A stretch of DNA of 64,000 nucleotides from Tetracentron sinense. Its lineage: Eukaryota > Streptophyta > Magnoliopsida > Trochodendrales > Trochodendraceae. This document shows positions 9,538 to 59,468 of the stretch, in pieces (within the stretch, counting starts at the first letter, position 1; the number at the start of each line of letters is the position of its first letter). The translations under genes were made by a program, and so were the position numbers. Below the pieces are notes generated by a model. It saw only the letters and a program-made list of their open reading frames with translations. It was not told the origin of the DNA and did no database searches. The stretch covers positions 28,092,445-28,156,444 of the forward strand of contig CM026570.1 in NCBI GenBank assembly GCA_015143295.1. The letters run 5' to 3'.

Positions 9538-9727
9538 GACCGAGCGATCGGTGTTAATGACCGATCGATCGGTTGCCTACCGATCGATCGGTTTCATAAC
9601 CGAGCGATCGGTTAAAATTTCACTCTCTGGAAAATTTCCCCATACAAAAAATCTTGACCAGTCGATAGCCTCCGATCGATCGGTTTTGGACCGATCGATC
9701 GCTGCAATGGACCGAGCGATCGGTTGC
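9538..9727 (-). repeat. Palindrome cassette of solo LTR I (ACCGATCGATCGGT class)
   Basis: Seven sites of the form CCGAxCGATCGG occur in 190 bp, several of them the perfect 12-bp palindrome CCGATCGATCGG. A spacer containing GACTGGTCAA, TTTTGTATGGGG and CCAGAGAG separates two groups. The cassette lies upstream of the TATA-like box on the LTR strand. Confidence 0.9.
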
Positions 9728-10144
9728 CTGCAGGTCCAGACTGTTTTGGCCAGATCTTTTGACTCGCTCGTCGGATTTTGACGATTCAACTCGCGTTGGG
9801 TTCGTACTTCGAAAAGGAACATTTCTGACGTTTCGGAATTTCCCATTTCTTCCTTATTTATTAATTATACCTCTTTGAAGGCAAGATGGCAACGAAAGTG
9901 TCGTGCATTAAATGTGAAAAGGTCCGGGGCTCTACAGTTATATCTGCCTGTGATAATCCAACCACATAACTTTCCATCAATATATTCTTAGGGCCTTTAT
10001 CGATATCTCATATCATATATATCATCTTATGATCATGGTCAATTACCCATAATGAATATACAATAGATAAAGAAGAAGTCTTTATTAATCAAATTAAAAA
10101 GAATCTTACAATCTAAATGACTTTTCTAGGCATCATGTCTAACA

Positions 10145-10284
10145 ATCTCCCACTTGCCCTAAAAGTCACTGTGCCATAGATTTCACTCTCATACTATCTA
10201 AATGTGTTACAAATACTTTATCTGATAAAGCTTTAGTCATCAGGTCAGCAACATTAAGTTGAGACCTAATCTTTGTAACAATAA
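10145..10284 (-). other. Copia C 3' end with polypurine tract
   Basis: Internal sequence between 3' LTR and solo LTR. Directly next to the LTR the minus strand reads AAGTGGGAGATTGTTAGAC, the usual plant copia polypurine tract followed by the LTR start. The rest encodes the decayed end of RNase H and no longer holds an open frame. Confidence 0.85.
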
Positions 10285-10578
10285 TGTCGCGACCCAAAAC
10301 CCACCCTAGGAGTTAGAGTGAACTTTGGACGACTAATCATGACTTGCTTGACAACTAACCTGCAAAACCCACAGAGCATATACAATAGAGGATATAAACA
10401 GTGGAAACATACTCTAACATAGCACAGCGGAAGACTACCAAACCTCTATGTATATACATACACAAATCCAAGTTTATACAAAAAGTAATCCATACGAAAG
10501 AGTGGACATGCCCGCCAAAATACATAAATCTAACTCTCATCTCACCCACAGCTAATCCACTCAGAATCTAATCACCAC

Positions 10579-10689
10579 CTACTGATAACCCTCTACGGGA
10601 GGTTCCTCCAAAGGCTCCTCGGCGTACTCCTCTTCCACCCATGGACCAGGAGCACAAACATCAAATGGGGCAGCAGCTCCCTCAGAACC
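10579..10689 (-). CDS. Conserved LTR micro-ORF, copy 1 of the duplication (ATG lost)
   Basis: Open frame of 37 codons with stop TAG, reading GSEGAAAPFDVCAPGPW and then VEEEYAEEPLEEPPVEGYQ. It is the typical form of the acidic LTR micro-ORF. The codon that is ATG in most copies is TTG here, so if translation depends on that ATG this copy is silent. It sits just after the GCTGAG/CTCAGC hairpin at 10709-10729. The same frame is repeated identically at 10982-11092. No recognised domain; function unknown. Confidence 0.3.
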   Translation of the reverse strand, partial: GSEGAAAPFDVCAPGPWVEEEYAEEPLEEPPVEGYQ

Positions 10690-10981
10690 TGCCGACAAAA
10701 GAAGTACGGCTGAGCATGGAATACTCAGCGGGTACTAAATACTAACCAACTTGACAACTAACCTGCAAAACCCACAGAGCATATACAATAGAGGATATAA
10801 ACAGTGGAAACATACTCTAACATAGCACAGCGGAAGACTACCAAACCTCTATGTATATACATACACAAATCCAAGTTTATACAAAAAGTAATCCATACGA
10901 AAGAGTGGACATGCCCGCCAAAATACATAAATCTAACTCTCATCTCACCCACAGCTAATCCACTCAGAATCTAATCACCAC

Positions 10982-11092
10982 CTACTGATAACCCTCTACG
11001 GGAGGTTCCTCCAAAGGCTCCTCGGCGTACTCCTCTTCCACCCATGGACCAGGAGCACAAACATCAAATGGGGCAGCAGCTCCCTCAGAACC
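10982..11092 (-). CDS. Conserved LTR micro-ORF, copy 2 of the duplication (ATG lost)
   Basis: Exact second copy of the frame at 10579-10689, produced by the 403-bp tandem duplication. It has the same TTG in place of ATG, the same PFDVCAPGPWVEEEY core and the same TAG stop. It is preceded by its own copy of the hairpin. No independent evidence of function. Confidence 0.28.
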   Translation of the reverse strand, partial: GSEGAAAPFDVCAPGPWVEEEYAEEPLEEPPVEGYQ

Positions 11093-11454
11093 TGCCGACA
11101 AAAGAAGTACGGCTGAGCATGGAATACTCAGCGGGTACTAAATACTAACCAACAATTATAGCGTAGAAATAGCAATACATAATCAGGAGCAATTCATATA
11201 TGTCAAACGGAAACAATTCACATCATACAAGGAAGTAAAGCAGTTTATAATCATGCTTGTAATTCGTAGAAAACCGATAAATCCTCTTGAAACATCGTGT
11301 GCTTGACTTGACTTGAAATATCTTTTTGTACTTGAAAGCTTGTCATGTCTATCTTGCTTGATTCTTGTATGTCGTGTCATGTCATGCATGTCATGCGTGC
11401 TTGCTTGTGATCATGTAACTTGTGAGATATCCTTGTGAGGTGTCCTTGTGAGAT

Positions 11455-12515: not shown

Positions 12516-13326
12516 GAATAGTGCTGTGAATATTGCCAACTCGTTGTGCTGTGAATAGTGCCAACTCGTTGTACTGTGAATAGTGCCAACTCGTTGTGCT
12601 GTGAATAGTGCCAACTCGTTGTGCTGTGAATAGTGCCAACTCGTTGTGCTGTGAATAGTGCCAACTCGTTGTACTATGAATAGTGCCAACTCGTTGTGCT
12701 GTGAATAGTGCCAACTCGTTGTGCTGTGAATAGTGCCAACTCGTTGTGCTGTGAATAGTGCCAACTCGTTGTGCTGTGAATAGTGCCAACTCGTTGTACT
12801 GTGAATAGTGCCAACTCGTTGTGCTGTGAATAGTGCCAACTCGTTGTGCTGTGAATAGTGCCAACTCGTTGTGCTGTGAATAGTGCCAACTCGTTGTACT
12901 ATGAATAGTGCCAACTCGTTGTGCTATGAATAGTGCCAACTCGTTGTGCTGTGAATAGTGCCAACTCGTTGTGCTGTGAATAGTGCCAACTCGTTGTGCT
13001 GTGAATAGTGCCAACTCGTTGTACTATGAATAGTGCCAACTCGTTGTACTATGAATAGTGCCAACTCGTTGTGCTGTGAATAGTGCCAACTCGTTGTGCT
13101 GTGAATAGTGCCAACTCGTTGTACTATGAATAGTGCCAACTCGTTGTGCTGTGAATAGTGCCAACTCGTTGTGCTGTGAATAGTGCCAACTCGTTGTGCT
13201 GTGAATAGTGCCAACTCGTTGTACTGTGAATAGTGCCAACTCGTTGTACTATGAATAGTGCCAACTCGTTGTGCTGTGAATAGTGCCAACTCGTTGTGCT
13301 GTGAATAGTGCCAACTCGTTGTGCTG
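12516..13326 (-). repeat. 25-bp tandem array, about 32 copies
   Basis: Unit GTGAATAGTGCCAACTCGTT plus GTGCT on the plus strand, period 25 bp, with only T/C and A/G variants (GTGCT, GTACT, ATGAA). Each unit holds the dyad CAAC-TC-GTTG. It replaces the palindrome cassette of sister LTRs and is followed by two GTTGTACAAC palindromes at 13348-13380. Because 25 is not a multiple of 3, all frames are open over long stretches; those frames are not genes. Confidence 0.95.
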
Positions 13327-13616
13327 TACAAACGTGCCCGTGGTGAGTTGTACAACGTGCCCGTGGTGAGTTGTACAACGGATGCACACAGTATACGTTT
13401 TCCTACAGGTACAGACTGTTTTGGCCATATCTTTTGACTCGTTCGTCCGATTTTGACGATTCAACTTGCGTTGTGTTCGTACTTCGAAGAGGAACAATTC
13501 TGACATTTCAAAATTTCCAAATTCTTCCTCATTTATTAATCATACCTCTAAAAAGGCAAGATGACAACGAAAGTGTCATGTATTAAGCATGGAAAAGTCT
13601 GGGGCTCTACAAATAA

Positions 13617-15428: not shown

Positions 15429-15708
15429 TTAAAGCCTTAAGATCATTTTCTTAAGTTCAAATTTGGATTTTCGAAGTCGGATCTATTGAAAATCTGGGTT
15501 ACTTAAATCCATTTGTAGACTAGTTGGATTTAGGGGAAATTATTCCATGAATAAAGAAGAATTAGAAGATTCTAAACAGCCAGAATTGTTCCTCTTAGAA
15601 TGATGAGTTCAATGCAAGATGAATCGTCAAAATCCAACGAACGAGTCAAAAGTTATGGCCGAAATACCAAAATGGAAAAAATCTGGAAATTTACTGTTAG
15701 ATTTACAA

Positions 15709-15872
15709 ATGATCGTACAGACCCTACGAACGATCGTAGGTGAGCTACGATCAATCATAGAATTTCAGAAATGGGAAAAATTCTCAGCAACGTTTACGAT
15801 CGATCGTAGGAAACTACGAGCGATCGTAGTATATTTACAATCAATCGTAGATATATTACGACCGATCGTAAG
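15709..15872 (+). repeat. Palindrome cassette of LTR E (TACGATCGATCGTA class)
   Basis: Seven sites of the form TACGAxCGATCGTA in about 165 bp. One is the perfect 14-bp palindrome; the others have one or two changes. Same core as the other class (CGATCGATCG), but the outer bases are TA/TA rather than AC/GT. TATAAATAAG follows about 50 bp downstream. Confidence 0.9.
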
Positions 15873-15923: not shown

Positions 15924-15933
15924 TATAAATAAG
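15924..15933 (+). promoter_or_regulatory. TATA box of LTR E
   Basis: TATAAATAAG just downstream of the palindrome cassette, in the position where U3 ends in sister LTRs (16889, 38291, 47167). Inferred core promoter of the LTR. Confidence 0.6.
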
Positions 15934-16713: not shown

Positions 16714-16772
16714 TTCACTAGTCGACGAGTGGACTTCACTAGTCGACGAGTGAGCACCACTCATCGACGAAT
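16714..16772 (+). repeat. Palindrome cassette of LTR F (GTCGAC class)
   Basis: Three sites in a row: ACTAGTCGACGAGTG twice, then ACTCATCGACGAATC. The symmetric ideal is CTCGTCGACGAG. It is shorter than in other LTRs and has a GTCGAC core in place of CGATCGATCG. TATAAATAG follows at 16889. Confidence 0.8.
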
Positions 16773-16888: not shown

Positions 16889-16897
16889 TATAAATAG
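16889..16897 (+). promoter_or_regulatory. TATA box of LTR F
   Basis: TATAAATAG about 120 bp downstream of the cassette, followed by a purine-rich leader. Inferred start region of LTR transcripts. Confidence 0.6.
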
Positions 16898-19138: not shown

Positions 19139-19738
19139 TCGTGAATAGTGCCAACTCGTGGTGGCGTAAATAGTGCCAACTCGTGGTGCCGTGAATAGTG
19201 CCAACTCGTGGTGGCGTGAATAGTGCCAACTCGTGGTGGCGTGAATAGTGCCACTCGTGGTCCGTGAATAGTGCCACTCGTGGTGCTTGTGAATAGTGCC
19301 ACTCGTGGTGCTTGTGAATAGTGCAAACTCGTGGTGCTTGTGAATAGTGCCAACTCGTGGTGGCGTGAATAGTGCCAACTCGTGGTGGCGTGAATAGTGC
19401 CAACTCGTGGTGGCATGAATAGTGCAACTCGTGGTGCCGTGAATAGTGCCAACTCGTGGTGCTGTGAATAGTGCCAACTCGTGGTGGCGTGAATAGTGCC
19501 AACTCGTGGTGGCATGAATAGTGCCACTCGTGGTGCCGTGAATAGTGCCAACTCGTGGTGCTGTGAATAGTGCCAACTCGTGGTGGCATGAATAGTGCCA
19601 CTCGTGGTCCGTGAATAGTGCCACTCGTGGTGCTTGTGAATAGTGCCACTCGTGGTGCTTGTGAATAGTGCAAACTCGTGGTGCTTGTGAATAGTGCCAC
19701 TCGTGGTCCGTGAATAGTGCCACTCGTGGTGCTTGTAC
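19139..19738 (-). repeat. About 24-bp tandem array with CACTCGTG dyads
   Basis: About 25 degenerate units of GTGAATAGTGCC(A)ACTCGTGGTG plus a variable tail (GC, CC, CTT, TCC). It is homologous to the 12516-13326 array but with GTGG in place of GTTG. Where the extra A is absent the dyad is CCAC-TC-GTGG. All-frame openness is an array artefact. Confidence 0.93.
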
Positions 19739-20449
19739 AACGTACCCGTGGTGAGCTGCACAACGTGCCCGTGGTGAGTTGTACAACGTGCCCGTGGTGA
19801 GTTGTACAACGGATGCAAACAGTATACGTTATCAGAGTACGTTGTCTGTGCCACGATTTCCTACAGGTACAGACTGTTTTGGCCATATCTTTTGACTCGT
19901 TCGTCCGATTTTGACGATTCAACTTGCGTTGTGTTCGTACTTCGAAGATGAACAATTCTGACATTTCGAAATTTCTAAATTCTTCCTCATTTATTAATCA
20001 TACCTCTTAAAAAGGCAAGATGACAACGAAAGTGTCATGTATTAAGCATGAAAAAGTCTGGGGCTCTACATGAATTCCCTTTGTTATTCACTCTATGATG
20101 TTTCCTACAAAAGTAATTCTCTATGTTTAAGAATGTTTAGATTTCTATGATGTATGATACTTTATGCATATGCCTCAATGCTATTAAGGTATTTTATGAT
20201 CTCCATGATACTCATAAGAGCTATGTGCTATGTTTAAGATATTCTAGGTCTAACATGATACTCAAATTTCTCACATGTTATATTCCGAGCTTTCAAAGGA
20301 TTATGTTATTATGTCAAAAGGTTTAGTCTCGCATGAATCGGATTTCTCATAGGTTGGATGTTTCAAAATTCATAAGAAATGTTTAAGGAAATCTCATAAG
20401 AACTCACAAGTTATTTTGCGGGATCATAGATGCTCACAAGTATCTCAAA

Positions 20450-29922: not shown

Positions 29923-30221
29923 TGTAAATCCCTAAGTAGGTGGTGGCAAATTCCGTGATCGTTAGATAGGTCATGTGAGTCGAGTCGGGTTTAACTTGTC
30001 AGAAGAGAAGAGCTAAAGCATAAAGAAGATTGAAGAAAGTGAAGAAAAAGCTCATACTCTGGATCTAGAAAGGTAATTGACTTAGAGACCCCTACCTAGG
30101 TTGGATTTGACTTAGATAACTCTAAACATACCTAGGAGGATAGTTTTAAACCTAATAAAGTTGTTTGATCTTAGTTGAATCAAATAAACATGAAATGAAT
30201 CATGGTTTGAAAAAATTATGT

Positions 30222-30400: not shown

Positions 30401-30442
30401 CCGTAAAAAGAATTTTTATTTTTCTGGATTCTTTTTTAAACC

Positions 30443-38234: not shown

Positions 38235-38290
38235 TATACGTAAATTTTCTTCAGTAAGGGCTTTAAGTCTTAACCATCACCCCCTTTGCC

Positions 38291-39231: not shown

Positions 39232-39366
39232 GGTGCTCGGGTTCCTTTCGACTTGTGTGGTTCGAAGCCTTGGGTAGAGGAAGAATACTACGACCCGGAG
39301 CCTTCTATGGAACACTACCAGGATGATGGCTCGCTAGATAGGCGTCACGACTTTGATTTCTGTTGA
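39232..39366 (+). CDS. Conserved LTR micro-ORF, gypsy 5' LTR
   Basis: 45 codons with stop, from GGT: GARVPFDLCGSKPWVEEEYY, then DPEPSMEHYQDDGSLDRR and a tail HDFDFC. The ATG of other copies is TCA here, and ATCATCGGCAG just upstream is a good 3' splice-site look-alike, so it may be read as a second exon behind AAG|GTAGAT (about 38500). It ends 263 bp before the LTR end and is not in frame with gag. The 3' LTR copy at 48095-48229 is also open, with several amino-acid changes (E/K, D/N, C/Y). Function unknown. Confidence 0.38.
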   Translation, partial: GARVPFDLCGSKPWVEEEYYDPEPSMEHYQDDGSLDRRHDFDFC

Positions 39367-39632
39367 CTACGATAGTTAGAAAGATATGATATTTTGTTAA
39401 GTGGGAGTGGGACTTGTCCACTCCATATTTTGGATATATATAGGTATTTTGTTGTTTCAAACTTAGACAAAGTAATAGGAGTGTTTAATTATATATTCTG
39501 CTTCCGCTATGTATGTCTGTGTACTCTGACAGGTTGTTACTTGTGCCTTATGTATCATATAGGATGTATGATACGGCAGTCACGAGCTAAAGTATCCTTA
39601 ACTCCTAGGGGGTATTTTGGGTCGCGACAGAC

Positions 39633-39645
39633 TTGGTATCAAAGC
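39633..39645 (+). other. Gypsy primer binding site
   Basis: TTGGTATCAAAGC starting 4 bases after the LTR end. It differs from the standard initiator tRNA-Met site TGGTATCAGAGC at one base. Confidence 0.9.
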
Positions 39646-40026
39646 TTTAGGGATTGGTTTCCCTTGGGCTAAGCAGTAGTGAGTCCTCTGAGTTGAACTT
39701 AGAGCTCAGATGGAAGTGTTGTTTTAAGTTTGCTAGCATGACATAACCGGTATCAAGCGAATCCTTAGGTCGGTCTAGGATCCTAGTTTAGATGTCAATT
39801 TAGACTATGTCCTTAGTCTTATCCCAAAAGTAAGGGTTGATACGCAACAGAGGGGTCTTAGCTACACTAGAAAACTCTAAGTTATAATTGTGTGATTATG
39901 TGTATACTTTGATGTATACTATATGCGGTTATTAGCATTTCATGTTCATTGAATTGCTATGCATTGTGTGAAGATTGGTATCCAAGTTAGACTCATGTTT
40001 TGCCATTGATCTCAGGATTTTACATT

Positions 40027-41103
40027 ATGAGATACGGCAATCGGGGTCATGGTTACCATACTCGAAGATCAGAGGGTGAGGTTCCAAGAGAGGAAGAGCC
40101 GCTTTACTTCACAAATGCTATGGATTCCATAGCAGAGACTTTGGCTTTGTTGGCAACCAGACCTGCTGTGATTACTCCTACCCCACCGACTACTCATGTG
40201 CCTCCGCCAGTGCATCACACCGTGGGACTTGAAGCTTTCCAGAGACTACGGCCTCGTACATTATATGGGACTCTGGACCAATGGTGGTAGAGGCATGGAT
40301 TATGCAGTTGGAGAAGACCTTTCGAGCTCTCCGCTGTACTGAGGAGCAGTGGGTTGAGTGGGCTTCCTTCGTGATGGAAGGTGAAGCCGAGCATTGGTGG
40401 AGAGCTGCCCAAAGGCAGAGGGATGTTGCGAAGGCAGGGGAACCCTGGACATGGGCGGAGTTCCTGAACACCTTCCACGAGCAGTATTTTCCCAAATTTA
40501 TTCAGGAACATAAGGCAAGGGAATTCATGCTCTTAGAGCAGGGAGCGATGAACGTAGCTGAGTACGAGGCTAAGTTCACCGAGTTGTCAAGATTTACTCC
40601 ACATCTGGTCATGACTGAAGATCGGAGGGTCAGAAAATTTGAGATGGGGTTGAAGGCGTTCATTCATGATAGGGTGTCCATCCTCCAAGTAGAATCCTGG
40701 AGGGAGATAGTGGGAAAGGCAAAGATCGCCGAGAAGAATGTAGAGTTTATCAGGAGAAGGGATAGTGGCTTCGGGAGGAGCATGTCCCGGGGTCAGTCTA
40801 ATGGTTCGGCACAGTCCAAAAAGAGAACAGGACTGCTCCATATCAGTTCCCTCAGTCGATGTCGGCTCAAAGGCCTCCTTTTGTGCCTCATACACCATGC
40901 CCTACAACGTCACGGGCTACGAGGGCTATGCCTCTGGCTTCCTCCGCATCGCAGGCATTCGAGGAGTGCGTCGTATGTGGTCGTTGGCACAAGACTGGGG
41001 ATCGCCAAAGATTATCGAGTGGATGCTTCCACTGTGGTGAGGTTGGTCACATGATATGGGATTGCCCATGCAAGCAGTCACAGACTAGGCCACAGGGAGT
41101 CTG
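40027..41103 (+). pseudogene. Gypsy gag (frameshifted)
   Basis: Gag begins MRYGNRGHGYHTRRSEGE and runs to about 40290, where the frame changes. The next frame (40281-40850) has MQLEKTFRALRCTEEQWVEW, AEHWWRA, the motif WAEFLNTFHEQYFP and AKFTELSRFTPHLV. This is the retrotransposon gag domain of Del/Tekay chromoviruses. A further shift near 40850 leads to SGCFHCGEVGHMIWDCPC (about 41030-41080), the CCHC knuckle. At least two frameshifts are needed, so the protein is not made. In an intact element it would form the particle and bind RNA. Confidence 0.9.
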
Positions 41104-41401
41104 ACCTCCAGGTAGGCAGACTTCGCTTTAGGGGTCTTCATCTTAGGCCTCCAGATCCTTGCCGCCAACCCAGCAGCCTCGTCAAGCAAATCAGGGCAGG
41201 GTATTTGCCATAACCGATCGAGACGCACAGGCATCTAATGATGTTGTGCAAGGTACGCACGAGTTTGAGATTATTAAAATTCTAGAGTTGCCATGATGTA
41301 TTATATGTATATATTCTATGTAGTGTTTTGTTATGCGTGTATCAACATGTATTAGGTATGTAGTTATTTTATAAATTGGGTAGTTAAAATTCACAAGTTC
41401 G

Positions 41402-44400
41402 TTGCTAGTAAATGAGTGTTTAGCACGGATGTTGATCGACACGGGATCCACTCATTCATTCGTCTCGCCTAGTTTTGCCGAAGGCTTTACATCTGAGCCA
41501 AGTAAGCTACTTCAAGAGTTGTCCATTTTGACTCCACTGAGTAAGTCTGTTGAGGCAGATAAAGTGTATCTGGGCAGTGTTGTGCAAGTTATGTAGCATA
41601 AGTTGCCAGTCGACCTGATCATTCTGGGATTTCAGGATTGGGATTTCGACGTTATCCTAGGTATGGATTGGCTCTCAGCTCACCACGGACATGTGGCGTG
41701 TTTCGAGAAGGTTGTGAACTTTAAACCCACTAGGTTGAAGCCATTTCATTTCAGGGGATTTCAGAAGAGAGACATTACTCGCTTTGCAGCTCTCTGTCTC
41801 GCGAATGTAGAGGTACAAGACTCCACACCCATTCCGGTTGTGTGTGAGTATATGGATGTTTTTCTAGAGACCTTACCGGGATTACCTCCTGATTGGGCAA
41901 TCGAGTTTGCGATTGAGCTAGCTCCAAGCATGGCTCCGATTTCTAGGGCTGCGTATAGGATGGCCCCTATCAAGCTTAAAGAGTTAAAGGAGTAGTTGGA
42001 AGAATTTCAAGGCCTTGGCTTCATCCAGCCAAGTGTCTCACCTTGGAGAGCTCCGGTGCTCTTCATGAAAAAGAAAGATGGGTCGATGCAGATGTGCATT
42101 GACTACAGGTAACTAAACAAGGTCACTATCAAGAATCGTTATCCATTGCCTTAGATAGATGACTTGTTTGACCAGTTGAAGGGTGCAAAATTCTTCTCAA
42201 AGATTGACCTTCAATCTGGGTATCATCAGTTGAAGATCAAGGCAGAAAACATTCTGAAGACGGCATTCAGAACCCAATATGGTCACTATCAGTTGTTGGT
42301 TATGTCTTTTGGTCTGACTAACGCGCCGGCTACATTCATGGACCTGATGAACCGGGTGTTCAAATTGTCTCTCGATCAGTGTATGATCATATTCCTAGAT
42401 GATATCCTTGTGTATTCACAAACACAGGATGATCACACAAGAGATCTCCGTGTGGCATTACAGACTCTTCGAGAGCATCGCCTGTATGCTAAGTTGAGCA
42501 AGTGCGAGTTCTGGCTGAATAAAGTGTCGTTTCTTGGTCATGTGGTGTCTGTTGAGGGTATCTCAGTTGATCCTATGAAGATCGAGGCAATGATGAATTG
42601 GGAGAGGCCGAAGAGCATTATTGAGATTCACAGTTTTCTCAGCTTGGTAGGATACTACAGGAGGTTCATGGAGGGATTCTCTAGCTTGGCGGCTCCGCTT
42701 ACCTGCCTCACGCGAAAGAACACTAGGTTCACTTCCAGTGAGAAGTGTGAGGCAAGCTTCCTAGAGTTGAAGAAGAAGCTTACTACTGCCCCTGTTCTCA
42801 CAGTTCCGTCTGTGAGTAATGGCTTCAAAGTCTACAGTGATGCTTCACTTGTTGGGCTTAGGTGCGTTCTTATACAGCATAAGCAGGTGGTTGCCTATGC
42901 TTCCTGCCAGTTGAAGGAGCATGAGCAGAACTACCCAACGCACGATCTAGAGCTTGCCGCCATCATCTTTGAACTAACGATTCGGCGTCACTACCTCTAT
43001 GGGAAGAGTTCGTTATGTTCACGGATCACAAGAGCTTGAAGTATCTCTTCTTCCAGAAGGAGTTGAATATGAGACAGCGCCGATGGATGGAGTTCATGAA
43101 GGACTACGATTGTTCCATTCAGTATCATCCGGATAAGGCGAACGTAGTAGCCGATGCTCTTAGCAAAAAGCCTTACGGGGTTATGGCTAACGTGAGGGTC
43201 CAAGAATGAAATTTATTGAAGGATATGTGTAACCTAGACACTACCCTCAGACATGCTACCTATGGGCCGGTGATGTCAAACATCTCAGTTAGGCCGCATA
43301 TCTTGGACCAAATCAAGGAGTTGCAGATTTAGACGCTGAGTTGCTTGCTTACCGAGACAAGTCGGTTAGCAGTGGCAGTCAGGAGTTTGCTTTGAATGGT
43401 GATGGTGCCATCACATTCAAAGGCAGGTTATGTGTTCCCACTAACACAGTGTTAAAGGGTGAGATTTTGGACGAGGCTCATCAATCCAAATACACGGTAC
43501 ATCCGGGAGGTACTAAGATGTACCAGAATCTCAAGAGGCACTATTGGTGGCGAAACATGAAGGGGAAAGTCATAGAATGCTTTTCTAGATGTTTGGTGTG
43601 CCAACAGGTGAAGGCCGAGCATTAGAGGCCAGCAATTCTTTTACAGTCTCTCCCTATTTCGGAATAGAAATGGGAGAATATCTCGATGGATTTCATCGTT
43701 GGCTTACCATGGACGACGAAGAGCTTCGATGCTATCTAGGTGATAGTGGACAGATTGACGAAGTCTGCGCACTTTCTTCCATACCGGACTACTTTCAATT
43801 CAAATCAATTGGTAGCTTTGTATGTTAAAGAGGTGGTCTGTCTACACGGGTGCTGGTTTCCATCGTGTCTGATTGAGATCCAAGGTTTACTTCCAGGTTC
43901 TGGAAAACTTTTCAGAGTGTTATGGGTTCTCGGTTAGATTTCAGCACCACCTTTCATCCTCAAACCGATGGGCAAACTGAACGGGTGAACCAGGTTGTAG
44001 AGGATATGCTCCGAGCTTGCATGTTGGACTTTCAGGGCAGTTGGGAGGAACACTTGCCGTTGGTTGAGTTTGCCTACAACAACAGTTACCAGGCAAGCAT
44101 CCAAATGGCACCTTTTGAAGCTCTATATGGTTGAAGTTGTAGATCTCCTCTATACTGGGATGAAGTTGGTGAGAGGAAGGTACTGGGTCCTAAATTGATC
44201 AAGCGGACCGCAGGAAGGGTCAAGCTCATCAGGGAGCTGTTGAAAACTGCTCAGGATAGGCAGAAAAGCTATGCGGACACTCGCCACAGAGATTCGGAAT
44301 TCCAAGTTGGGGACTGGGTCTTTGTGAAGATTTTGCTTAGTTGGGGAATCTTGAGGTTCGGAAAGAAAGGGAAGCTCAACCCTCGATACATAGGGCCATT

Positions 44401-44725
44401 CGAGATCATCACTAGGTTTGGTGAGGTTGCTTACAGGATCGCCCTACTGCCTCACATAGCAGCGGTCTATAATGTATTTCACATTTCCATGCTCAGGTAA
44501 TACATTCCGGATCCGTCTCACGTCATTGCTCTTGATCCCATGGAGATTCGAGAGGATCTCACTTTGGTTGAGCAACCAGCTCAGATCTTGGATCGTCGAG
44601 ATCAAGTCTTGCGCACCAAGACTATTCCGTTAGTCCTTGTGAAATGGCAGCACCATTCTGCAGAAGAGGCTACGTGGGAGCGTGAAGTTGAAGTGAGGGA
44701 AAAGTACTCTCATTTGTTTCCTTGA
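41402..44725 (+). pseudogene. Gypsy pol: protease, RT, RNase H, integrase, chromodomain (broken)
   Basis: In order: protease MLIDTGSTHSFVSP (41429-41470); GMDWLSAHHGHV; RT with [35 protein letters not shown], catalytic FLDDILVYS (42391-42417) and [19 protein letters not shown]. RNase H follows: [20 protein letters not shown] and, after a frameshift near 43010, [11 protein letters not shown] and [12 protein letters not shown]. Integrase has an H-H-C-C finger (HQSKYTVHPGG, CLVCQQVK), a damaged core with VDRLTKSAHFLPYRTTF, and FHPQTDGQTERVNQ. The C-terminus has KLNPRYIGPFEI and PLVLVKWQHHSAEEATWERE, a chromodomain-like block. At least eight stops or shifts (for example 41594, 41993, 42107, 42151) kill it. 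Confidence 0.93.
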
Positions 44726-44731
44726 TGTTAT

Positions 44732-46623
44732 TGTCACATCCCAAAATACCCCCTAGGAGTTAGGGATACTTTAGCTTGTGACCGCCGTATCATACATCCC
44801 GTATGACACATAAGGCATACTTATCATCCTGTCAGGATATGCAAGTTATAACACATAGCGGAAATAAAGCAGAAACAATTTATAATAACACTCCTATCGT
44901 TAGGTTCAAGTCTGAACCAACAGAACATATCTAAGTCTTTTAGCATGCTTTTCTTCTTAACATCATAATATAAACAACATCTAATCAAAAGTGAACTAGT
45001 TAGCCTTTTTATTCGTTGGTTTAAGTCATAGCATCATCATAATTGAATTAGTAGAATTGCCTACTAGTTCATAACACAAAGTAAAGGATTCTATCTTGAA
45101 TTTTAATAGGGATTATGGCATGAAATTTAGTAGAGTATATCTACACTCTTTCCTTCAAGGTACATGATTTACCTCTTGTTTTTCCTAGATGAATCCTAAC
45201 ATGGATGTCAAGTAGAAACCATCTACATATTCGAGGCCTTGAACCTCGATTTTTATTTCATTTCATAATATACCACAAAAGTAATATACCTTACTCTTCT
45301 TTAAAATCCATACATCATTATAACCAAAATCATAGTTTACAAAGAACAAGATCCAATACCTTGATTTCATTTCATTAGTTTCAATAGTTTATGCCAATAA
45401 AAGTTACAAGCCATCAATGAATCATAACATGGAGAGTTCTACTTTCTAAGCATGAAGGGATCATGACAAAGTAGTTAGTAGGTTGTTCTACCTTAAAAAG
45501 GAAGTTTTTACACTTCAGTGGGCTGAATCAAGCTTGAGGAAATTTTGGTTGAAGCTTTGGAAAATCTGAACCTTAATTGGAAAACAAACCATAAACCCCT
45601 CTTTTGATTTTTGAATTTGAGAATCACCTTGGGTAGAAAACTCAAGCTCTAAAACACCAAAAATAGTAAAATACCAACCTTAGAAGCAAGGATTTAGCTT
45701 CACTTTAGTCTGAGGAGAACGGTTTGAGAAATCAAAGTGTTCTTCTTCTTCTTTTCTTCTTCAATCTCTCAAAATCCAAGCTTAGTTTTGGGTAAACCCA
45801 TACCCACGAAATCTCATCTATTTATAAGCTAAAGGGTGTCAAAAATCCTAAAATATCTTAGGAAAATATCCCAAAATATCTCCCAAGGTCGGTGGAAGAG
45901 TTCTAGGCTGTTACAGGGTCGTTTTTGGCATTTTCGGGGCTGACTCGTCGACGAGTGACGCTCACTCGTCAACTAGTGAAGTCCACTCGTCGACTAGTGA
46001 AGTTAAGACAGGCCTGGGTTTTTCCCGCTTTAGTTTTTCAACCATAACTTTTGACTCGCTTATCTGATTTTGACAATTCAACTTGTGTTGGATTCATATT
46101 TTAAAGGGAAACAACTTTCATGTTTTGCAAAATTGTTAATTCTTCTTTATTCATGGACCAAATTTCCCTTAAAGCTGACTGGTCCGAAAATGAGTTCCAG
46201 TAGCCTAGATTTTCAGCAGACTCGTTTCTGGAAATATGACGTTTGACCCAACCTCTGCTGAAAATCTGAAAAGGTGATAAACATGAACCTAGAAGAAGGT
46301 TTCAATACCTTTCTAAAAATTCAGGAATCACTCGATTCGGATCCCCGGTGAGAATTCTAGAGTTCTTTAAAGTTGAGGGTATTTTTAGGCATCCCTTTCT
46401 CTGACACTTGGAGTATGTTATACTCTCATTTTTCGTCTGTCCCCAACCCCCAAAAACACTTTCCATACATATTTTGATTCTTTCAATACCTCCTTTCATT
46501 ATAAAACATGAACCCACAATTCCATTAAGGCTTTAGGCCTTGAAAAATACTATTTACCGCACTATTCACATACTATTCATAGCACTATTCACAGCCTAGT
46601 GAACTTGGTTCCGGGGTTCTACA
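44732..46623 (-). mobile_element. Solo LTR H, Tekay-type, inverted inside the gypsy 3' region
   Basis: 1892 bp flanked by GTTAT at 44727-44731 and 46624-46628. On the minus strand it begins TGTAGAACCCCGGAACC and ends GGGATGTGACA. It follows the pol stop by a few bases. It is a close relative of solo LTR F (same cassette class, TATAAATAG at about 45826-45818, same leader). It lacks the hairpin and micro-ORF region, the only LTR of this kind here that does. Opposite orientation to the host LTRs makes an inverted repeat within one transcription unit. Confidence 0.93.
45944..46010 (-). repeat. Palindrome cassette of LTR H (GTCGAC class)
   Basis: Three sites: ACTCGTCGACGAGTG (perfect CTCGTCGACGAG), ACTCGTCAACTAGTG and ACTCGTCGACTAGTG. 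Same class and position as in LTR F. Confidence 0.85.
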
Positions 46624-46690
46624 GTTATGTTCATGTAATTGTTTCTTTTTGTTCTTTTGGTGTCGTTCAAATTTCGAGGATGAAATTCTT

Positions 46691-46703
46691 GTAAGGGGGA
46701 GGA
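46691..46703 (+). other. Gypsy polypurine tract
   Basis: GTAAGGGGGAGGA directly in front of the 3' LTR start TGTAGAACCCC; priming site for plus-strand synthesis. Confidence 0.88.
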
Positions 46704-46925
46704 TGTAGAACCCCGAATTTTCATTTCACTAAGTAGTGAATAGTGTTCAAGTGTAGTCTTGTACACTAATGGGATTATGATAATGGAAATGTTTGGATAT
46801 ATGGTGTATATGTGTTGATGGGTATATATTGCCTAAAGTAGTGTGTTTTGAGTGTACAAGGTATTAGAATTGGATTGGAGAAGGTCCAAGTATTGGAAAA
46901 AGGGTTTTAGAGCAAAAACAGGGGA

Positions 46926-47111
46926 GCATCGATCGCTCGGTGATAACACCGATCGACCGGTCATCTACCGACTCGCTAGCTATCAACTGGTCAAATATTT
47001 TGTATGGGGAAAATTTCTAGAGAGGGTGTTTTCAACCGATCTCTCGGTTGAAACCACTGATCACTTGGTAAGCCACCAATCGTTCGGTCCTGACCACCGA
47101 TCGATCGGTTA
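46926..47111 (+). repeat. Palindrome cassette, gypsy 3' LTR
   Basis: Homologous to 38070-38234. The sites have drifted (ATCGATCGCTCGGT, ACCGATCGACCGGT, ACCAATCGTTCGGT) with one ACCGATCGATCGGT left. It is about 20 bp longer, through one extra site. Confidence 0.85.
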
Positions 47112-48094
47112 TACATAAATTTTCTTCATTAAGGGTTTTTAAGTCTTTAACCATCACCCCTTTGCCTATAAAAGGCTCAGGTCGTGCCTTAGGGTTTCAG
47201 AAACCCTTGAGGCATATTTTTGAGAGAGTTTGAGAGGAATGAAGAAAGAGAAATCTAGGGTTTGCTCAAAGCTTGGAGAAGAAGATCAAATCTTCCCTTC
47301 TTTGGTGATTTTCAACAAGGAACTCGAAGTTCTCACTTGTTCCAAGCATTTGGAATCGAATCTCTCGATTTCACCAAGGTAGATACATTCTACTACCAAT
47401 CTTGTGATAATACTAGTTACCACATGATGTTCTTCTTATTCTATACAATAAATCTTGATTTGATATGGTGTGGGATGTTGTTTTTATACTTGGATGTAAA
47501 CTACTACTATTATATACTCTATATGTTTGGTTTAATGCCTCTAAGGGCTTTTATGTTTAAATATGCTATTACTCTCATATGTTCGCATGTCTTGCATGAA
47601 TCGGGGTTTTACCATAGATTTCTCAAAGTTCTAAAAGAGGTTTTTAAGTAAGGGACTCACATGATGATTTTAAGAAACTCCATGATATTGTCTAAGATCG
47701 GTTCACAAGCTCCAAAGATCATATCAAACTCACAAGAACTCTATGATAATGTCTAAGAACGATGTACAAGCTCTAAGGATTATAAATGTAAATGTTCTAA
47801 GATCCCTATGGTTTTGCTCTATGGTATTGCTCTACGTCTCTATGGATCATAAATGACTCTAAGGAACTCTAAGAACTTAACTCAAAGAAATCACAAGGCT
47901 ATGATTATCACATGACTCACACGGTTTTGGTTTTCGGATTTCATCATATGTGCTATTTCACAGTTTCTACACTTCGATATGTTTTAAGGATTTCAGTCTC
48001 CATGATCTACATGCTTCATGATATTATTGCTTATTGTTAGTAGTATGTATATGCTGAGTATTCTACGCTCAGCCGATATTTGTTATCATTGGCA

Positions 48095-48229
48095 GGTGCT
48101 CGAGTTCCTTTCGACTTGTGTGGTTCAGAGCCTTGGGTAGAGGACGAATACTACAACCTGGAGCCTTTTATGGACCACTACCAAGATGATGGCTCGCTAG
48201 ATAGGCGTCATGACTTTGATTTCTATTGA
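48095..48229 (+). CDS. Conserved LTR micro-ORF, gypsy 3' LTR
   Basis: Same length and frame as the 5' LTR copy (39232-39366): GARVPFDLCGSEPWVEDEYY, NLEPFMDHYQDDGSLDRRHD, FDFY, stop TGA. It keeps P-W-V-E and HYQDDGSLD. No ATG at the usual place. The two LTRs were identical when the element inserted, so the differences arose afterwards and none created a stop; with so few changes that alone proves little. Confidence 0.33.
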   Translation, partial: GARVPFDLCGSEPWVEDEYYNLEPFMDHYQDDGSLDRRHDFDFY

Positions 48230-48829
48230 CTACAATAGTTAAAAAGATATGATATTTTGTTAAGTGAGAGTGGGGCTTGTCCACTCCACATTTTGGATAT
48301 ATATATACAGGTATTTTGTTGGTTCAAACTTGGACCGAGCAATAGGAGTGTTTAATTATATATTCTGCTTCCGATATGTATGTCTGTGTACTCTAATAGG
48401 TTGTTACGTGTGCCTTATGTATTATATGGGATGCATGATACGGTAGTCAGGAGCTAAAGTATCCCTAACTCCTAGGGGGTATTTTGGGTCGCGACACTTT
48501 TTTGTAACACAATCTTTTTTACTTTATGATTTTCAGTTTCTGATGATGAATTGCTTCTGGGTATTTTAATTTTTGTATGGGGTTTTTATTTCAATGTTAA
48601 AATGGAACCCCATTTGGAATTTCATTGGGAATTTGATGTTAAATTGAAGTAAACCCGTGGGTAGAACCGAACTGAACCGAGGCTCTACGGTTCGATCCTA
48701 GGTTGGTTTTCTTCCAAACCGAGGTTCAATGATTCGGTCCTAGGTTGGATTTTTTAGAACCGAAGTTCATCAGTTCGGTCCCAAAAATTCTCATAACCAA
48801 ACCGAACCGTGTGCATCCTTAAGGGGAAC

Positions 48830-55188: not shown

Positions 55189-55375
55189 AGACCGAGCGAT
55201 CGGTGTGTATGACCGATCGATCAGTTGCCTATCGAGCGATCGGTGAATTGACCGAGCTCCTGGTCAAAAATCAACTCTCTGGAAAATTTCCCCATACAAA
55301 TTTTTCGACCAGTCGATAGCTACCGATCAAGCGGTTTTGGACCAATCGATCACTCCATGGACCGAGCGATCGGTG
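55189..55375 (-). repeat. Palindrome cassette of LTR K (ACCGATCGATCGGT class)
   Basis: Sites ACCGAGCGATCGGT, ACCGATCGATCAGT, ATCGAGCGATCGGT, ACCAATCGATCACT and similar, seven in all, around the same spacer (CTCTCTGG, CCCCATACAAA, GACCAGTCGATAGC on the plus strand) as in LTRs I, L, D and the gypsy. Confidence 0.88.
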
Positions 55376-56462: not shown

Positions 56463-56730
56463 GCTACCGCATGCGATCGATCGCACACTTATCTGCGATC
56501 GATCGCAGGTCCTTGCGATCGATCGCACCTGGATGCGATCTATCGCACATGAACCTGAACATTTCTGGTCTGATTTCCCCCTACATGCGATCGATTGCAC
56601 ACTCTTGCGATCGATCGCAGATCCCTGCGATCTATCGTACCTGGGGATCCATCTATCACATATGGCCCTGAGAGTTTGGGACCCATTTCGCCTACATGCG
56701 ATCAATCGCACCAAACTTGCGATCGATCGC
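56463..56730 (-). repeat. Palindrome cassette of LTR J (TGCGATCGATCGCA class)
   Basis: About nine sites, at least four with the perfect 12-bp palindrome GCGATCGATCGC. The variants are GCGATCTATCGC, GCGATCGATTGC and GCGATCAATCGC. The spacers differ from the other class (CATTTCTGGTCTGATTTCCC). Confidence 0.92.
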
Positions 56731-57092
56731 ACCTCCCAGATCTTGTTGTTTTCTCTTATTTTTCCTTACTTTGGTAATTTGGCCATAACTTTTGACTCGG
56801 TTGCCCGATTTTGACGATTCAACTTGCGTTGGATTTGTCTTTCGAAGGGAAACATTCTTGGTATGTTAGAATTTCTAATTTCTTCTTTATTTATTGACTA
56901 AATTGCCCCTGAAGTCAACTGATCAGCAAATGGGTTTCAATAACTCGGGTTTTCGATATATTCGACTTAGGAATACTACTTCTTAACACTTAGAGTTGTT
57001 CAAAATTTCTCATTTCATAGAAATGGAAGATTACAGGGGCTTCATATCTTGGCACGGGTCCCAATACATGACAAAAAGTCTGGGGCTCTACA

Positions 57093-57180
57093 GGCTGGGT
57101 CCGCATGCTTTCTGAGGTACTAACCTTGCAACTTTCACATCAATAATGACATCTGTTCGTCATCAACACCAGTGGCCTCC
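57093..57180 (+). other. Host fragment between solo LTR J and solo copia LTR
   Basis: 88 bp of host sequence. It continues the frame from 52448 (GPHAF, then TGA) and is rejoined at 61720 after the copia LTR. It bears the TSD halves GGCTG (57093-57097) and CCTCC (57176-57180). Confidence 0.8.
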
Positions 57181-57746
57181 TGTTAGACATGATGCCCCAA
57201 AAAGTCATTTAGATTGTTAAATTCTTATTAATTTTTTTAATAGAGACTTCTTCTTTATCTATTATGCATTCATTATGGGTAATTGACCATGATCATGAGA
57301 TGATCTATACGATATGCGATATCGATAAAGGTCCTTAGGATATATTGTAGGAAAGTTATGTGATTAGATTATCACAGGCAAATATAACTTTCCGGTTCCT
57401 TTTACCTTATATAGTTATAGCTGTGGGTGAAGCTGGGCATGTCGCGCCCCGAAACCCACCCTAGGAGTTAGAGTGAATCTTGGACGGCTCATCATGACTT
57501 GCAAGACTTGCTTGACCAAGATAACCTGTAAAAGACCTAGAGCATAGACCATAGAAGACATAATAGCGGAAACATAATTACAATGCACAGCGGAAAACTT
57601 AACCAAAAACCTCTATGTGTATATACATATACATGATCCAAGTTATACAAAAAGATACACAAAAGAAAGTGCGGACAGGCCCGCCAAAATACAAGAATAT
57701 ATCTCTCTTAACACACCCACAGCTATTCACTCAGAATCTACCACCT

Positions 57747-57866
57747 CTAATAATAACCCTCTACCGGAGGTTCCTCTATAGGTTCCTCGACATACTCCTC
57801 TTCTACCCAAGGGCTGGGAGCATAGACGTCAAAAGGGGCAGCCGCTCTGCTATCACCTACCGACAT
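57747..57866 (-). CDS. Conserved LTR micro-ORF with ATG start (solo LTR L)
   Basis: 39-residue frame: M-S-V-G, DSRAAAPFDVYAPSPWVEEE, YVEEPIEEPPVEGYY, stop TAG. It begins at ATG TCG GTA GGT, 10 bp after the hairpin (57897-57877). The core A-A-A-P-F-D-V and P-W-V-E-E-E-Y is unchanged although the LTR as a whole is clearly diverged from K and J. Acidic; no known domain. Function unknown. Confidence 0.42.
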   Translation of the reverse strand: MSVGDSRAAAPFDVYAPSPWVEEEYVEEPIEEPPVEGYY

Positions 57867-58142
57867 AAGAAGTACGGTTGAGCATGGAATACTCAGCGTG
57901 TACCGAATACTAACCAACAGTCATAGCAAAACAATAGCAATATAGGAAGCAGGAAGCAGTTCACAGATATAAAGTAGGAACAATTCATATCATCACGAGA
58001 AAGTAAAGCAGTTGATAATCATGCTTGCATTCATAAAAGCCGATAAAATCCTTGAAAACATCGTGCACTTGACTTGACTTAAAACCTCCTTTTCGTGCTT
58101 AAAACTTGTCATGTCATGCTCTTGCTTGTGATCATGCTTGCT

Positions 58143-58372
58143 TGGGTGTGCCTAGCTGCCATTCATAGACCGTCGCAACTAGTATCCCCTATGCTGGACT
58201 GGGTATGCCTAGATGCCGTTCATAGACCGTCGTAACTAGTATCCCCTATGCTAGACTGGGTATGCCTAGATGTCGTTCATAGACCGTCGCAACTAGTATC
58301 CCCTATGCTGGACTGGGTATGCCTAGATGTCGTTCATAGACAGTCGCAACTAGTATCCCCTATGCTGGACTT
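58143..58372 (-). repeat. About 57-bp tandem repeat, four copies
   Basis: Units contain GGGTATGCCTAGATGCCGTT, CATAGACCGTCGCAACTAGT and ATCCCCTATGCTGGACT. A single related unit is in solo LTR I at about 8289-8345, so the amplification is specific to L. Confidence 0.9.
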
Positions 58373-59277
58373 GTGATATCGGAGCAAAGCATATCTTAGC
58401 AAATGCCCTACCCCTAAGCAAAACATATCTTAGGATATGTCCTACTCCTGACACTCGAAAACCTGATAAAGCTTATCATGCATGCCATGCTCGTGGAATC
58501 GTGTACATACTTGCATTTGAATTTAAATATGGCAATTGGGTAATTCACAATACATATAACATCGATAATTTGAGCAAGTCAATATTCATGCAATTTAGGG
58601 AAAGCAAGGAAACACACTATCATAGGCCCTAGGAATTTCTATAATTAATTAAGCATGCATCTCTTAATTTACAACTCATTTTATTTACCTTGGCATTTCA
58701 TCAAACATGGGGTGTGTTCATTATGTATTAACCCTACATCATGCTTTTCTAGGTGGATTGATGTTCACATCACACATGTATGTTTATTATGGATACAATG
58801 TCCTCCCCATTTCATTCATCCCATCATTCACACGGCATCCATTCGCCCAAATCCATCCTCACACAACCATTCCATTCACATCCCAATAGGTTCATACTTT
58901 AGGAAAACAATAAAAGGAAGGAAAGAATGGGGGATATGAACTAGGAGGGTAGTAAAAGGTACCGACCATGAAAAGTGGAAGAAAACACTTGCAAGAGTCG
59001 AGGTTGGACGCTGCCCTAGCTTTGAAGAACGTGCTCCTCGCTTGCTTGAAGATGGATTTGAAGAATCCAAGCCTTGAGGTGAGATCTAGGGTTCTTGGAC
59101 TCTTGATTTCTCTCAAGATGCAACCCTAGTTGAAAACCCCTCTTCCTCTCCTCTACTCTCTCTTAAAATGCTGCCCTAAGGGTTTATGAAACCCTTAGGC
59201 TCGAGTAAGCCATTATAGGCGAGGTGAAAATGCCCAAAAGATGAAAAAGCCCTCAATGAAAATTCTACAAAAACGCG

Positions 59278-59468
59278 AAGACCGAGCGATCGGTGATTAT
59301 GACCGATCGATCGGTTGCCTACCAAGCAATCGATGTTCTTGACCGAGCAATCGGTCAAAAACATACTCTCTGGAAAATTTTCCCATACTAAAAAGTTAAC
59401 CAGTCAATAGGTACCGATCGATCGGTTTTGGACCGATCGATCGCTATTAATGACCGAGCGATCGGTGC
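59278..59468 (-). repeat. Palindrome cassette of LTR L (ACCGATCGATCGGT class)
   Basis: Seven sites including ACCGATCGATCGGT (twice), ACCGAGCGATCGGT (twice) and ACCGATCGATCGCT, with the same central spacer as LTRs I, K and D. Confidence 0.9.

What the first reader, a model, noticed from the sequence alone, without database searches (positions are those of the whole stretch)
9538..59468. Palindrome cassettes in LTRs change both arms together, element by element
Nearly every gypsy LTR here has, upstream of its TATA box, 3-9 short palindromes. Within one LTR all sites agree, but between LTRs the outer bases differ and stay symmetric: AC..GT (9538, 38070, 46926, 55189, 59278), TG..CA (56463), TA..TA (15709), all around CGATCGATCG; CTCGTCGACGAG in F and H (16714, 45944). 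The arrays at 12516 and 19139 keep a dyad too (CAAC-TC-GTTG, CCAC-TC-GTGG). Paired arm changes across a whole cluster are not expected of drift. They suggest sites read by a symmetric DNA-binding protein, or by strand-symmetric silencing or methylation (three CpG per site), with turnover of the recognised sequence. I know of no description of this.
Basis: partly seen in the sequence, partly recalled or inferred. Interest (0 to 1): 0.9.

Follow-up and report, generated by a model that had tools for sequence, protein, structure and literature searches.

The report
Palindrome arrays in plant retrotransposon promoters
Many long terminal repeats in this plant genome carry a row of short mirror-image DNA words near their promoter; different element lineages use different words but mostly keep the mirror symmetry, which looks like docking sites for a two-part regulatory protein, and a similar arrangement is already known from another retrotransposon group.

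Summary
The palindromes are real: 26 perfect 14-mers against 4.9 expected, 14 of them inside ten LTR cassettes that make up 2.6% of the window. A TATA-like box follows 8 of the 10 cassettes. Two related LTRs carry 25-bp arrays instead.

In the 1.16-Gb genome CGATCGATCG occurs 74,402 times (reversed-letter control 822). AC..GT (30,033), TG..CA (6,889), TA..TA (4,871) and TC..GA (266) flank it symmetrically; chimeras AC..CA/TA number 1,376, about 12,300 if arms combined freely. In 80 LTRs chosen by an upstream block alone, the most repeated 14-mer is a dyad of at least 6/7 in 52 (random letters: 1.8%). The outer bases are the best conserved columns of three classes.

Limits: symmetry is not strict. 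AG..GT, broken in one arm, has 12,183 copies; the 19139 array is mostly asymmetric; classes follow LTR descent, so independent switches are few (about ten changes on a tree).

The kind is not new: Sirevirus (Ty1/copia) LTRs carry palindromic boxes before the TATA box, different in each element (PMC2829016). Here at least one bearer is a Ty3/gypsy chromovirus.

Best reading: enhancer arrays for a dimeric DNA-binding protein whose recognised outer bases differ between LTR lineages. No binding was tested.

The parts
9538..9725 (-). ACC cassette, 7 sites in layout 3 + conserved middle spacer + 4 (c09)
12516..13380 (-). 25-bp tandem array in the place of the cassette, 32 CAACTCGTTG dyads (c12)
15704..15870 (+). 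TAC cassette, 7 sites (c15)
16714..16772 (+). ACTCG/CGAGT-class cassette, 3 sites (c16)
19139..19811 (-). 25-bp tandem array, 13 CAACTCGTGG and 9 CCACTCGTGG units (c19)
30226..30399 (+).
29923..31130 (+). solo LTR (TG..CA ends, about 5-bp target duplication with one difference) that carries c30, inside a copia-type element
   Evidence: 23177-23394 and 23390 onward align to 29707-29923 and 31132 onward; junction letters; copia domains 31102-32636
37845..48496 (+). Ty3/gypsy chromovirus with two LTRs 91% alike (37845-39629, 46704-48496): gag, protease, RT, RNase H, integrase, chromodomain in separate pieces; nested insertion inside
38065..38235 (+). ACC cassette of the 5' LTR (c38); its second site is ACCGGTTGACCGGT
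38291..38297 (+). TATA box downstream of c38
45943..46003 (-). ACTCG/CGAGT-class cassette, 3 sites (c45)
46924..47110 (+). ACC cassette of the 3' LTR (c46)
47167..47173 (+). TATA box downstream of c46
15924..15930 (+). TATA box downstream of c15
16889..16895 (+). TATA box downstream of c16
55189..55375 (-). ACC cassette (c55)
56463..56737 (-). TGC cassette, 9 sites, with an internal 112-bp period (79% matches) (c56)
59278..59468 (-). ACC cassette, 7 sites (c59)
9726..9835 (-). U3 block next to the cassette, shared by LTRs of several classes; also at 13396-13505(-), 15581-15690(+), 16596-16705(+), 19854-19963(-), 46010-46118(-), 55378-55483(-), 56756-56865(-), 59470-59575(-)
   Evidence: 30,612 genome copies of its 21-base core at up to 2 mismatches, control 0

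Best explanation
Each cassette is a proximal enhancer in the U3 part of an LTR: 2 to 10 twofold-symmetric sites, mostly 14 bp (two 5-bp arms around a 4-bp centre), mostly 19-22 bp apart; in the CGATCGATCG classes they usually form two or three groups around a longer spacer. The row ends 44-116 bp before a TATA-like box in 8 of the 10 window cassettes. I infer that a homodimeric DNA-binding protein, most likely a host transcription factor or a family of them, reads the two arms, and that LTR lineages differ in which outer bases are read. Shown: the sites, their symmetry, position, genome-wide spread, conservation of the outer bases, descent of each class with its LTR lineage, and the same ACC cassette in LTRs whose upstream parts do not align. 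Inferred: that a protein binds, that it activates transcription, that it is a dimer and host-encoded, and that symmetry is kept because both arms must match it.
For: Excess over shuffles. Motif chosen by repetition only, in LTRs chosen by the upstream block only: dyad of at least 5/7 in 15 of 17 and at least 6/7 in 11 of 17 (9 of the 17 are the window's own LTRs, 8 come from a 200-kb sample and all 8 reach 5/7); at least 6/7 in 52 of 80 and at least 5/7 in 61 of 80 further LTRs; random letters of the same composition give 1.8% and 16%. Arm pairing over 308 core-A sites: pair 1, 271 (141 expected if arms were independent); pair 2, 232 (114); both outer bases complementary in 213 of 308; majority arms exact complements in 51 of 55 LTRs, in six classes AC, TA, TG, GA, GG, TC, the last two by one LTR each. 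Whole-genome counts against independent arms: AC/AC 30,033 (18,214), TG/TG 6,889 (638), TA/TA 4,871 (319), TC/TC 266 (about 1), AC with TG or TA 1,376 (12,318). Outer two bases, which were not used to find the sites, against spacer and against the next two bases outward: 0.885, 0.786, 0.646 (30 ACC LTRs); 0.920, 0.601, 0.574 (10 TAC); 0.923, 0.484, 0.514 (6 TGC). Centre pair 6/9 not T-A in 122 of 308 sites, as for a spacer between half-sites. Neighbours 19-22 bp apart in 171 of 253. One cassette in LTRs with three different upstream parts. TAC and GAC cassettes with sites masked partly align.
Against: AG..GT, broken in one arm, is a stable site: 12,183 copies, second site in 23 of 30 ACC cassettes. 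About 25% of cores have flanks not counted here. 19 of 80 block-selected LTRs gave a dyad of 4/7 or less; 15 of these have words of the 20-25-bp array type. Phase is coherent at 10.0-10.2 bp (0.62, 0.56) but not at 10.5 (0.10), so a same-face argument is weak. Class follows descent, so independent symmetric changes number about ten; the expected counts above ignore descent. LTRs were grouped by their commonest left arm before the conservation count, which helps the left outer bases to agree. No protein was identified and nothing was tested at the bench.
Confidence: 0.55

Rival explanations
1. Founder amplification with drift: each LTR lineage by chance amplified a different palindrome in its U3, and the sites of an LTR agree only because they are copies; symmetry has no function.
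For: Class follows the LTR tree, 10 changes for 8 labels against 35.4 in shuffles. Cassettes do grow by duplication: 112-bp period in c56 and two identical 21-bp units in c16, a 41-bp duplication with repeated spacers in L050, 25-bp arrays. Spacer homology between classes is absent for AC-GA (z -0.6) and TG-GA (z -1.2).
Against: Outer site bases are conserved above spacers although neighbouring CpGs decay. Founders would have to be near-palindromes again and again, in about ten word classes. In most cassettes read by eye the spacers between copies differ while the sites agree (L050 is an exception).
Confidence: 0.2
2. Nucleic-acid structure and silencing: the self-complementary sites pair with each other in RNA or single-stranded DNA; hairpins feed small-RNA silencing or are kept for another structural role.
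For: Sense cassettes fold more stably than shuffles, z -3.9 to -7.7 in 6 of 6 folded, of 10 (60 shuffles each). Palindrome-rich LTR regions of maize Sireviruses are small-RNA hotspots (passages in PMC5311732 and PMC10760457).
Against: Any array of palindromes folds well, so the z-scores do not discriminate. Pairing between neighbours does not need each single site to be a palindrome. Asymmetric sites of one cassette mostly point the same way (111 pairs same, 24 opposite), which worsens pairing; many of these pairs are related by descent. The cassette lies upstream of the TATA-like box in the 8 cassettes where one was found.
Confidence: 0.17
3. Sequence-specific anti-silencing target: the arrays are read by a protein encoded by the elements, as VANC proteins read motif arrays in VANDAL transposons, with co-evolution of protein and motif.
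For: VANC targets are short motifs in arrays in non-coding parts that diverge together between related elements (PMC5735166, PMC10398659; passages). Site classes here differ between related LTRs.
Against: The one element examined shows only gag, protease, RT, RNase H, integrase and chromodomain in the pieces scanned; it is decayed and not all frames were scanned. The same ACC cassette serves LTRs with three different upstream parts, which suits a host factor better.
Confidence: 0.08

Closest known systems
Sirevirus 'RM' boxes (Bousios et al. 2010, PMC2829016; abstract and passages seen)
   Same: Palindromic repeated motif, 8 to 32 copies in an element, clustered in the LTR a short way upstream of the TATA box, CpG-rich, a different palindrome in many of the elements (Table 3). 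The Vitis element's box CGGTCGACCG is the core of the class ACCGGTCGACCGGT seen here (L046, L094, and with one change c38 site 2); with this many words such a match may be chance.
   Different: Sireviruses are Ty1/copia, and the authors report the motif absent from the classic retrotransposons they compared; the bearer 37845-48496 here is Ty3/gypsy with a chromodomain. Most classes here lack the CGG..CCG order. Cassette sharing between LTR families and arm-paired differences within one genome were not in the passages I saw.
Palindromic structures in maize Sirevirus LTRs (Bousios et al. 2016, Genome Res; not held; known here only through passages of PMC5311732 and PMC10760457)
   Same: Palindrome clusters in the regulatory part of the LTR, of high variability, hotspots of small-RNA mapping.
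Plastic CpG islands in Del (Ty3/gypsy) LTRs (PMC4029996; outline and passages)
   Same: CpG-rich stretch in gypsy LTRs that varies between lineages.
   Different: 'inverted repeat' and 'dyad' do not occur in its main text and 'palindromic' counts 0 in the listing; the cluster with all eudicot elements predominantly had no LTR island.
VANC target arrays of VANDAL transposons (PMC5735166, PMC10398659; passages)
   Same: Short motifs in arrays that differ between related elements and diverge together.
   Different: The motifs named in the passages (YAGTATTAY, AGTTGTCC, AGTTGTAC) are not 14-bp palindromes, and 'palindrom' counts 0 in both texts; the reading protein is encoded by the element.

Membership tests
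Sirevirus RM boxes | palindromic motif repeated in the LTR | tested here: met
Sirevirus RM boxes | cluster a short distance upstream of a TATA box | tested here: met
   TATA-like box 44-116 bp downstream of 8 of 10 window cassettes; none found for 55189 and 56463
Sirevirus RM boxes | at least 8 copies per element | tested here: inconclusive
   2-10 sites per LTR; element totals not counted
Sirevirus RM boxes | CpG island | tested here: met
   CpG observed/expected 1.61 in the ten cassettes, 0.50 elsewhere in the window; no island finder was run
Sirevirus RM boxes | CGG..CCG core signature | tested here: not met
   AC, TG, TA, GA, GG, TC classes lack it; ACCGGTCGACCGGT has it
Sirevirus RM boxes | carried by a Ty1/copia Sirevirus | tested here: not met
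   37845-48496 has Ty3-type gag, RVT_1, RNase H, H2C2 integrase and chromodomain; the other LTRs were not assigned
VANC targets | array of short motifs in a non-coding part, differing between related elements | tested here: met
VANC targets | element encodes a VANC-type reader | tested here: inconclusive
   none in the pieces scanned of one decayed element
Dimer-bound transcription-factor site array | twofold symmetry and conservation above the surroundings | tested here: met
   with the AG..GT exception
Dimer-bound transcription-factor site array | protein binding and effect on transcription | not testable with these tools
   no binding or expression data at hand

The most novel reading that the evidence does not exclude
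In one plant genome the enhancers of an LTR superfamily that includes Ty3/gypsy chromoviruses have changed the sequence that they offer to a dimeric DNA-binding protein about ten times, each time in both arms and at nearly all sites of the cassette (for example TA..TA and GA..TC, a transversion, on partly homologous cassettes), and cassettes are shared as modules between LTR families. This would be a natural record of cis-trans specificity turnover with tens of thousands of copies, driven by host factor change or escape from a repressor.
Probability: 0.35. Interest if true: 0.75.

Novelty: new variant of a known kind. Interest (0 to 1): 0.5.

Why it matters
If the sites bind a protein, the LTRs of this genome are a library of natural variants of one enhancer design: the same 10-bp core with at least six symmetric outer pairs, thousands of copies each for three of them, with insertions that could be dated. 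That would make it testable which factor activates a major plant retrotransposon group and how fast its recognised sequence turns over. It also extends palindromic promoter boxes, described for Ty1/copia Sireviruses, to a Ty3/gypsy chromovirus, so either they are older than that split suggests or they were acquired repeatedly.

Tried and rejected
Rejected: (a) counting the six ACC cassettes as separate evidence; they are one cassette. (b) Two-helical-turn phasing as strong support; phase at 10.5 bp is 0.10. (c) CpG methylation as the general cause; the repeated word of L126 has no CpG, though some of its sites do at their edges. (d) Folding energy as evidence for RNA structure; any palindrome array gives it. 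(e) Strict covariation; AG..GT sites refute it. (f) Arm conservation as first measured (ACC 0.88 against 0.76, TAC 0.86 against 0.59) is partly circular, since the sites were found by their core; one search repeats it on the outer two bases alone. (g) Spacer homology between all classes: AC-TA exceeds the dinucleotide null (z 6.2), but its reverse-complement control scores higher than the real one (7.28 against 6.79), so it is not counted; AC-TG z 4.4, TA-TG 5.6, TA-GA 4.3; AC-GA -0.6 and TG-GA -1.2. In one search only one TAC row (L042b) of five aligned with GAC rows above z 3; many pairs were tried there. (h) One site of c46 was entered one base off (47055 for 47056); its spacings stay within 19-22 bp when set right.

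Led nowhere: plant LTRs in IMG/VR and GTDB contigs. U3-block pattern: 0 in viral contigs, 0 in genome contigs. Two-site pattern: 24 viral loci, of which one has a single ACC-type site and none a cassette. RT as query: none confirmed. Rfam and tRNA scans of the window: 0. Literature searches by sequence words: 0 papers; 21 papers, titles and abstract starts seen, none on retrotransposon LTRs by title; further searches. My statement that I saw no earlier description for Ty3/gypsy rests on these searches of open-licence PMC papers only.

Not reached: counts of GACGATCGATCGTC, GGCGATCGATCGCC and TTTCGTCGACGAAA.

Full report
WHAT IS THERE. The window is angiosperm DNA with nested LTR retrotransposons; the RT piece at 42155-43036 has its named relatives, among the best 120 listed, mostly in flowering plants such as Tanacetum, Hibiscus, Cucumis, Solanum and Helianthus. 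It lies in an unnamed 1.16-Gb assembly at G000:C20:28092445-28156444. Fourteen-mers with perfect dyad symmetry number 26 against 4.9+-2.2 in shuffles, and 6/7 dyads 197 against 96+-9; 14 and 34 of them lie in ten cassettes of 1,660 bases together. The ten cassettes hold 58 of the 60 places that match a class word; two more decayed sites were added by eye for the spacing count. CpG observed/expected is 1.61 in the cassettes and 0.50 in the rest of the window.

ANATOMY. Site = two 5-bp arms around a 4-bp centre. In the AC, TG, TA, TC, GA and GG classes the form is NNCGA-NCGN-TCGNN; others are ACTCG-N4-CGAGT, TTTCG-N4-CGAAA, ACCGG-N4-CCGGT and CAACG-N4-CGTTG. The centre pair 6/9 is T-A in 186 of 308 sites. 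Neighbouring sites are 19-22 bp apart in 40 of 41 close pairs of the window and in 171 of all 253 neighbouring pairs of the larger sample. The ACC layout is three sites, a conserved spacer, three or four sites. A TATA-like box follows 44-116 bp downstream in 8 of 10 cassettes.

THE ACC CLASS IS ONE CASSETTE. The six ACC cassettes of the window align over sites and spacer. Their upstream flanks fall into three sets that do not align with each other: 9538/55189/59278; 38065/46924; 30226. Downstream, the promoter part of 38065/46924 does align with that of 9538 and 59278 (72-76% over 86-123 bp), while neither flank of 30226 aligns with the others. 30226 lies in a solo LTR of about 1.2 kb in a copia-type element; 38065 and 46924 are the LTRs of a gypsy chromovirus. 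So a cassette, with or without the core promoter, can pass between LTR families, or it outlasts the divergence of its surroundings; I cannot tell which.

EXCHANGE OF CASSETTES. LTRs with the same U3 block (GCAAGTTGAATCGTCAAAATC, 30,612 genome copies at up to 2 mismatches, control 0) carry ACC, TGC, TAC, ACTCG-class cassettes or 25-bp arrays. In 12516 and 19139 the flanks on both sides are homologous to those of 55189, while an array stands in the place of the cassette.

UNBIASED SAMPLE. In 200 kb taken at one fixed position on each of 20 contigs, all 8 LTRs found by the U3 block alone bear a repeated word of at least 5/7 symmetry, 4 of them at least 6/7. Of the first 100 block matches listed on contig C1 I fetched 80 for this test; 6 others had been fetched earlier for other reasons and 14 were not fetched. 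In the 80, the most repeated 14-mer is a dyad of at least 6/7 in 52 and at least 5/7 in 61; random letters of the same composition give 1.8% and 16%. Of the 19 at 4/7 or less, 15 have words of the array type. All 100 listed places match the block exactly and lie on one contig, so the sample favours young copies and that contig.

CONSERVATION. Sites were found by their 10-bp core, so the fair measure is the outer two bases on each side. Their mean pairwise identity per column is 0.885 in 30 ACC LTRs, 0.920 in 10 TAC and 0.923 in 6 TGC; spacers score 0.786, 0.601 and 0.484; the next two bases outward 0.646, 0.574 and 0.514. Rows were grouped by their commonest left arm, which favours agreement on the left side only.

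GENOME COUNTS. CGATCGATCG 74,402 (control 822); AC..GT 30,033 (control 3); AG..GT 12,183 (0); TG..CA 6,889 (1); TA..TA 4,871 (13); AC..CA or TA 1,376 (9 and 4); TC..GA 266 (5); other flanks 25%. ACTCGTCGACGAGT 2,111 (1). If arms combined freely, AC/AC would be 18,214, TG/TG 638, TA/TA 319, TC/TC about 1 and AC with TG or TA 12,318 (arm frequencies are lower bounds, since 25% of the cores were not typed). These expectations ignore descent, so they show linkage of the arms, not the number of events. Of the 100 listed chimeras 97 are AC..CA, many in pairs about 7.0 kb apart, which suggests one young family with a fixed asymmetric site.

HOW MANY EVENTS. On a tree of 70 downstream flanks, cassette left out, eight site labels need 10 changes (least possible 7; shuffled 35.4; 132 columns, many forks weak; 12 of the 70 rows had been fetched by site class). 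Class is therefore mostly inherited. The classes are the independent units: six outer dinucleotides on one core, each with its exact complement on the other side. If arms were unrelated, a class would be symmetric in both bases with chance 1/16. GG and TC rest on one LTR each in this sample; TC is backed by 266 genome copies.

ARE WHOLE CASSETTES SWITCHED? With sites masked, the spacers of a TAC cassette (L042b) and two GAC cassettes align (z 5.4 and 5.2); over 18 TAC and 3 GAC spacers the mean score beats dinucleotide shuffles (z 4.3) and the reversed and reverse-complement controls. The change T1-A14 to G1-C14 is a transversion pair and cannot come from cytosine decay. This is the best single case of a coherent two-arm difference. 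It is not overwhelming: four of five TAC rows showed no such match above z 3. L050 shows a TGC cassette in which one duplicated unit has become a perfect TAC site; that can be two transitions. One-arm TG..TA and TA..CA sites are common in TGC cassettes, as expected of decay.

WHAT SPEAKS AGAINST STRICT SYMMETRY. Both outer bases pair in 213 of 308 sites, not in all. The second site of ACC cassettes is AG..GT in 23 of 30 and has 12,183 copies. The third is AC..GA in 8 of 30. The 19139 array has 13 asymmetric and 9 symmetric units.

MECHANISM. Position before the TATA box, conservation of the outer bases, a free centre, repetition and re-use in different LTRs are what a dimer-bound enhancer array predicts. 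RNA or DNA structure is possible but predicts neither individual palindromes nor the common orientation of asymmetric sites (111 pairs against 24). An element-encoded reader is not excluded. I give 0.55 to the dimer enhancer.

PRIOR ART. Palindromic RM boxes upstream of the TATA box, different between elements, were described in Sireviruses in 2010 (PMC2829016; abstract and passages). Later work links them to small RNAs (seen only in passages of PMC5311732 and PMC10760457; the 2016 paper itself is not held). CpG islands in gypsy Del LTRs are known (PMC4029996; outline and passages). Co-diverging motif arrays are known from VANDAL elements (PMC5735166, PMC10398659; passages). New here, as far as the searches show: the Ty3/gypsy bearer, the sharing of one cassette between LTR families, and quantified arm-paired differences within one genome.

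Noticed in passing
window 10347-11153: A 403-bp tandem duplication with 100% identity in an LTR-like repeat; also a 98-bp tandem repeat at 1549-1752 with 100% matches. Recent events or assembly effects.
   Followed up: no
L038 1446-1760 and 3500-3800: CGGAAATATTTCCG palindromes repeated in another kind of repeat, without the U3 block of this family.
   Followed up: no
L081, L091, L108, L115, L118, L138, L145: LTRs of the 12516/19139 type carry a patchwork of 20-25-bp arrays; L145 begins with GCAATCGATCGCTCGGTTATGC, which looks like a leftover first ACC site from which an array unit could have grown.
   Followed up: partly
G000:C1:36984498/36991518, 37215046/37222058 and others: ACCGATCGATCGCA sites in pairs about 7.0 kb apart, suggesting a young family with a fixed heterotypic site.
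   Followed up: no
window 46547-46595, and upstream flanks of c38 and c46: The word GTGAATAGTG of the 25-bp arrays also occurs outside the arrays, near the start of other LTRs, a possible source of the array unit.
   Followed up: no
P0023 and P0114: Plant-type gypsy RT fragments filed under Bifidobacterium longum and Snodgrassella on contigs of 1.0-1.4 kb, probably plant contamination of bacterial assemblies.
   Followed up: no
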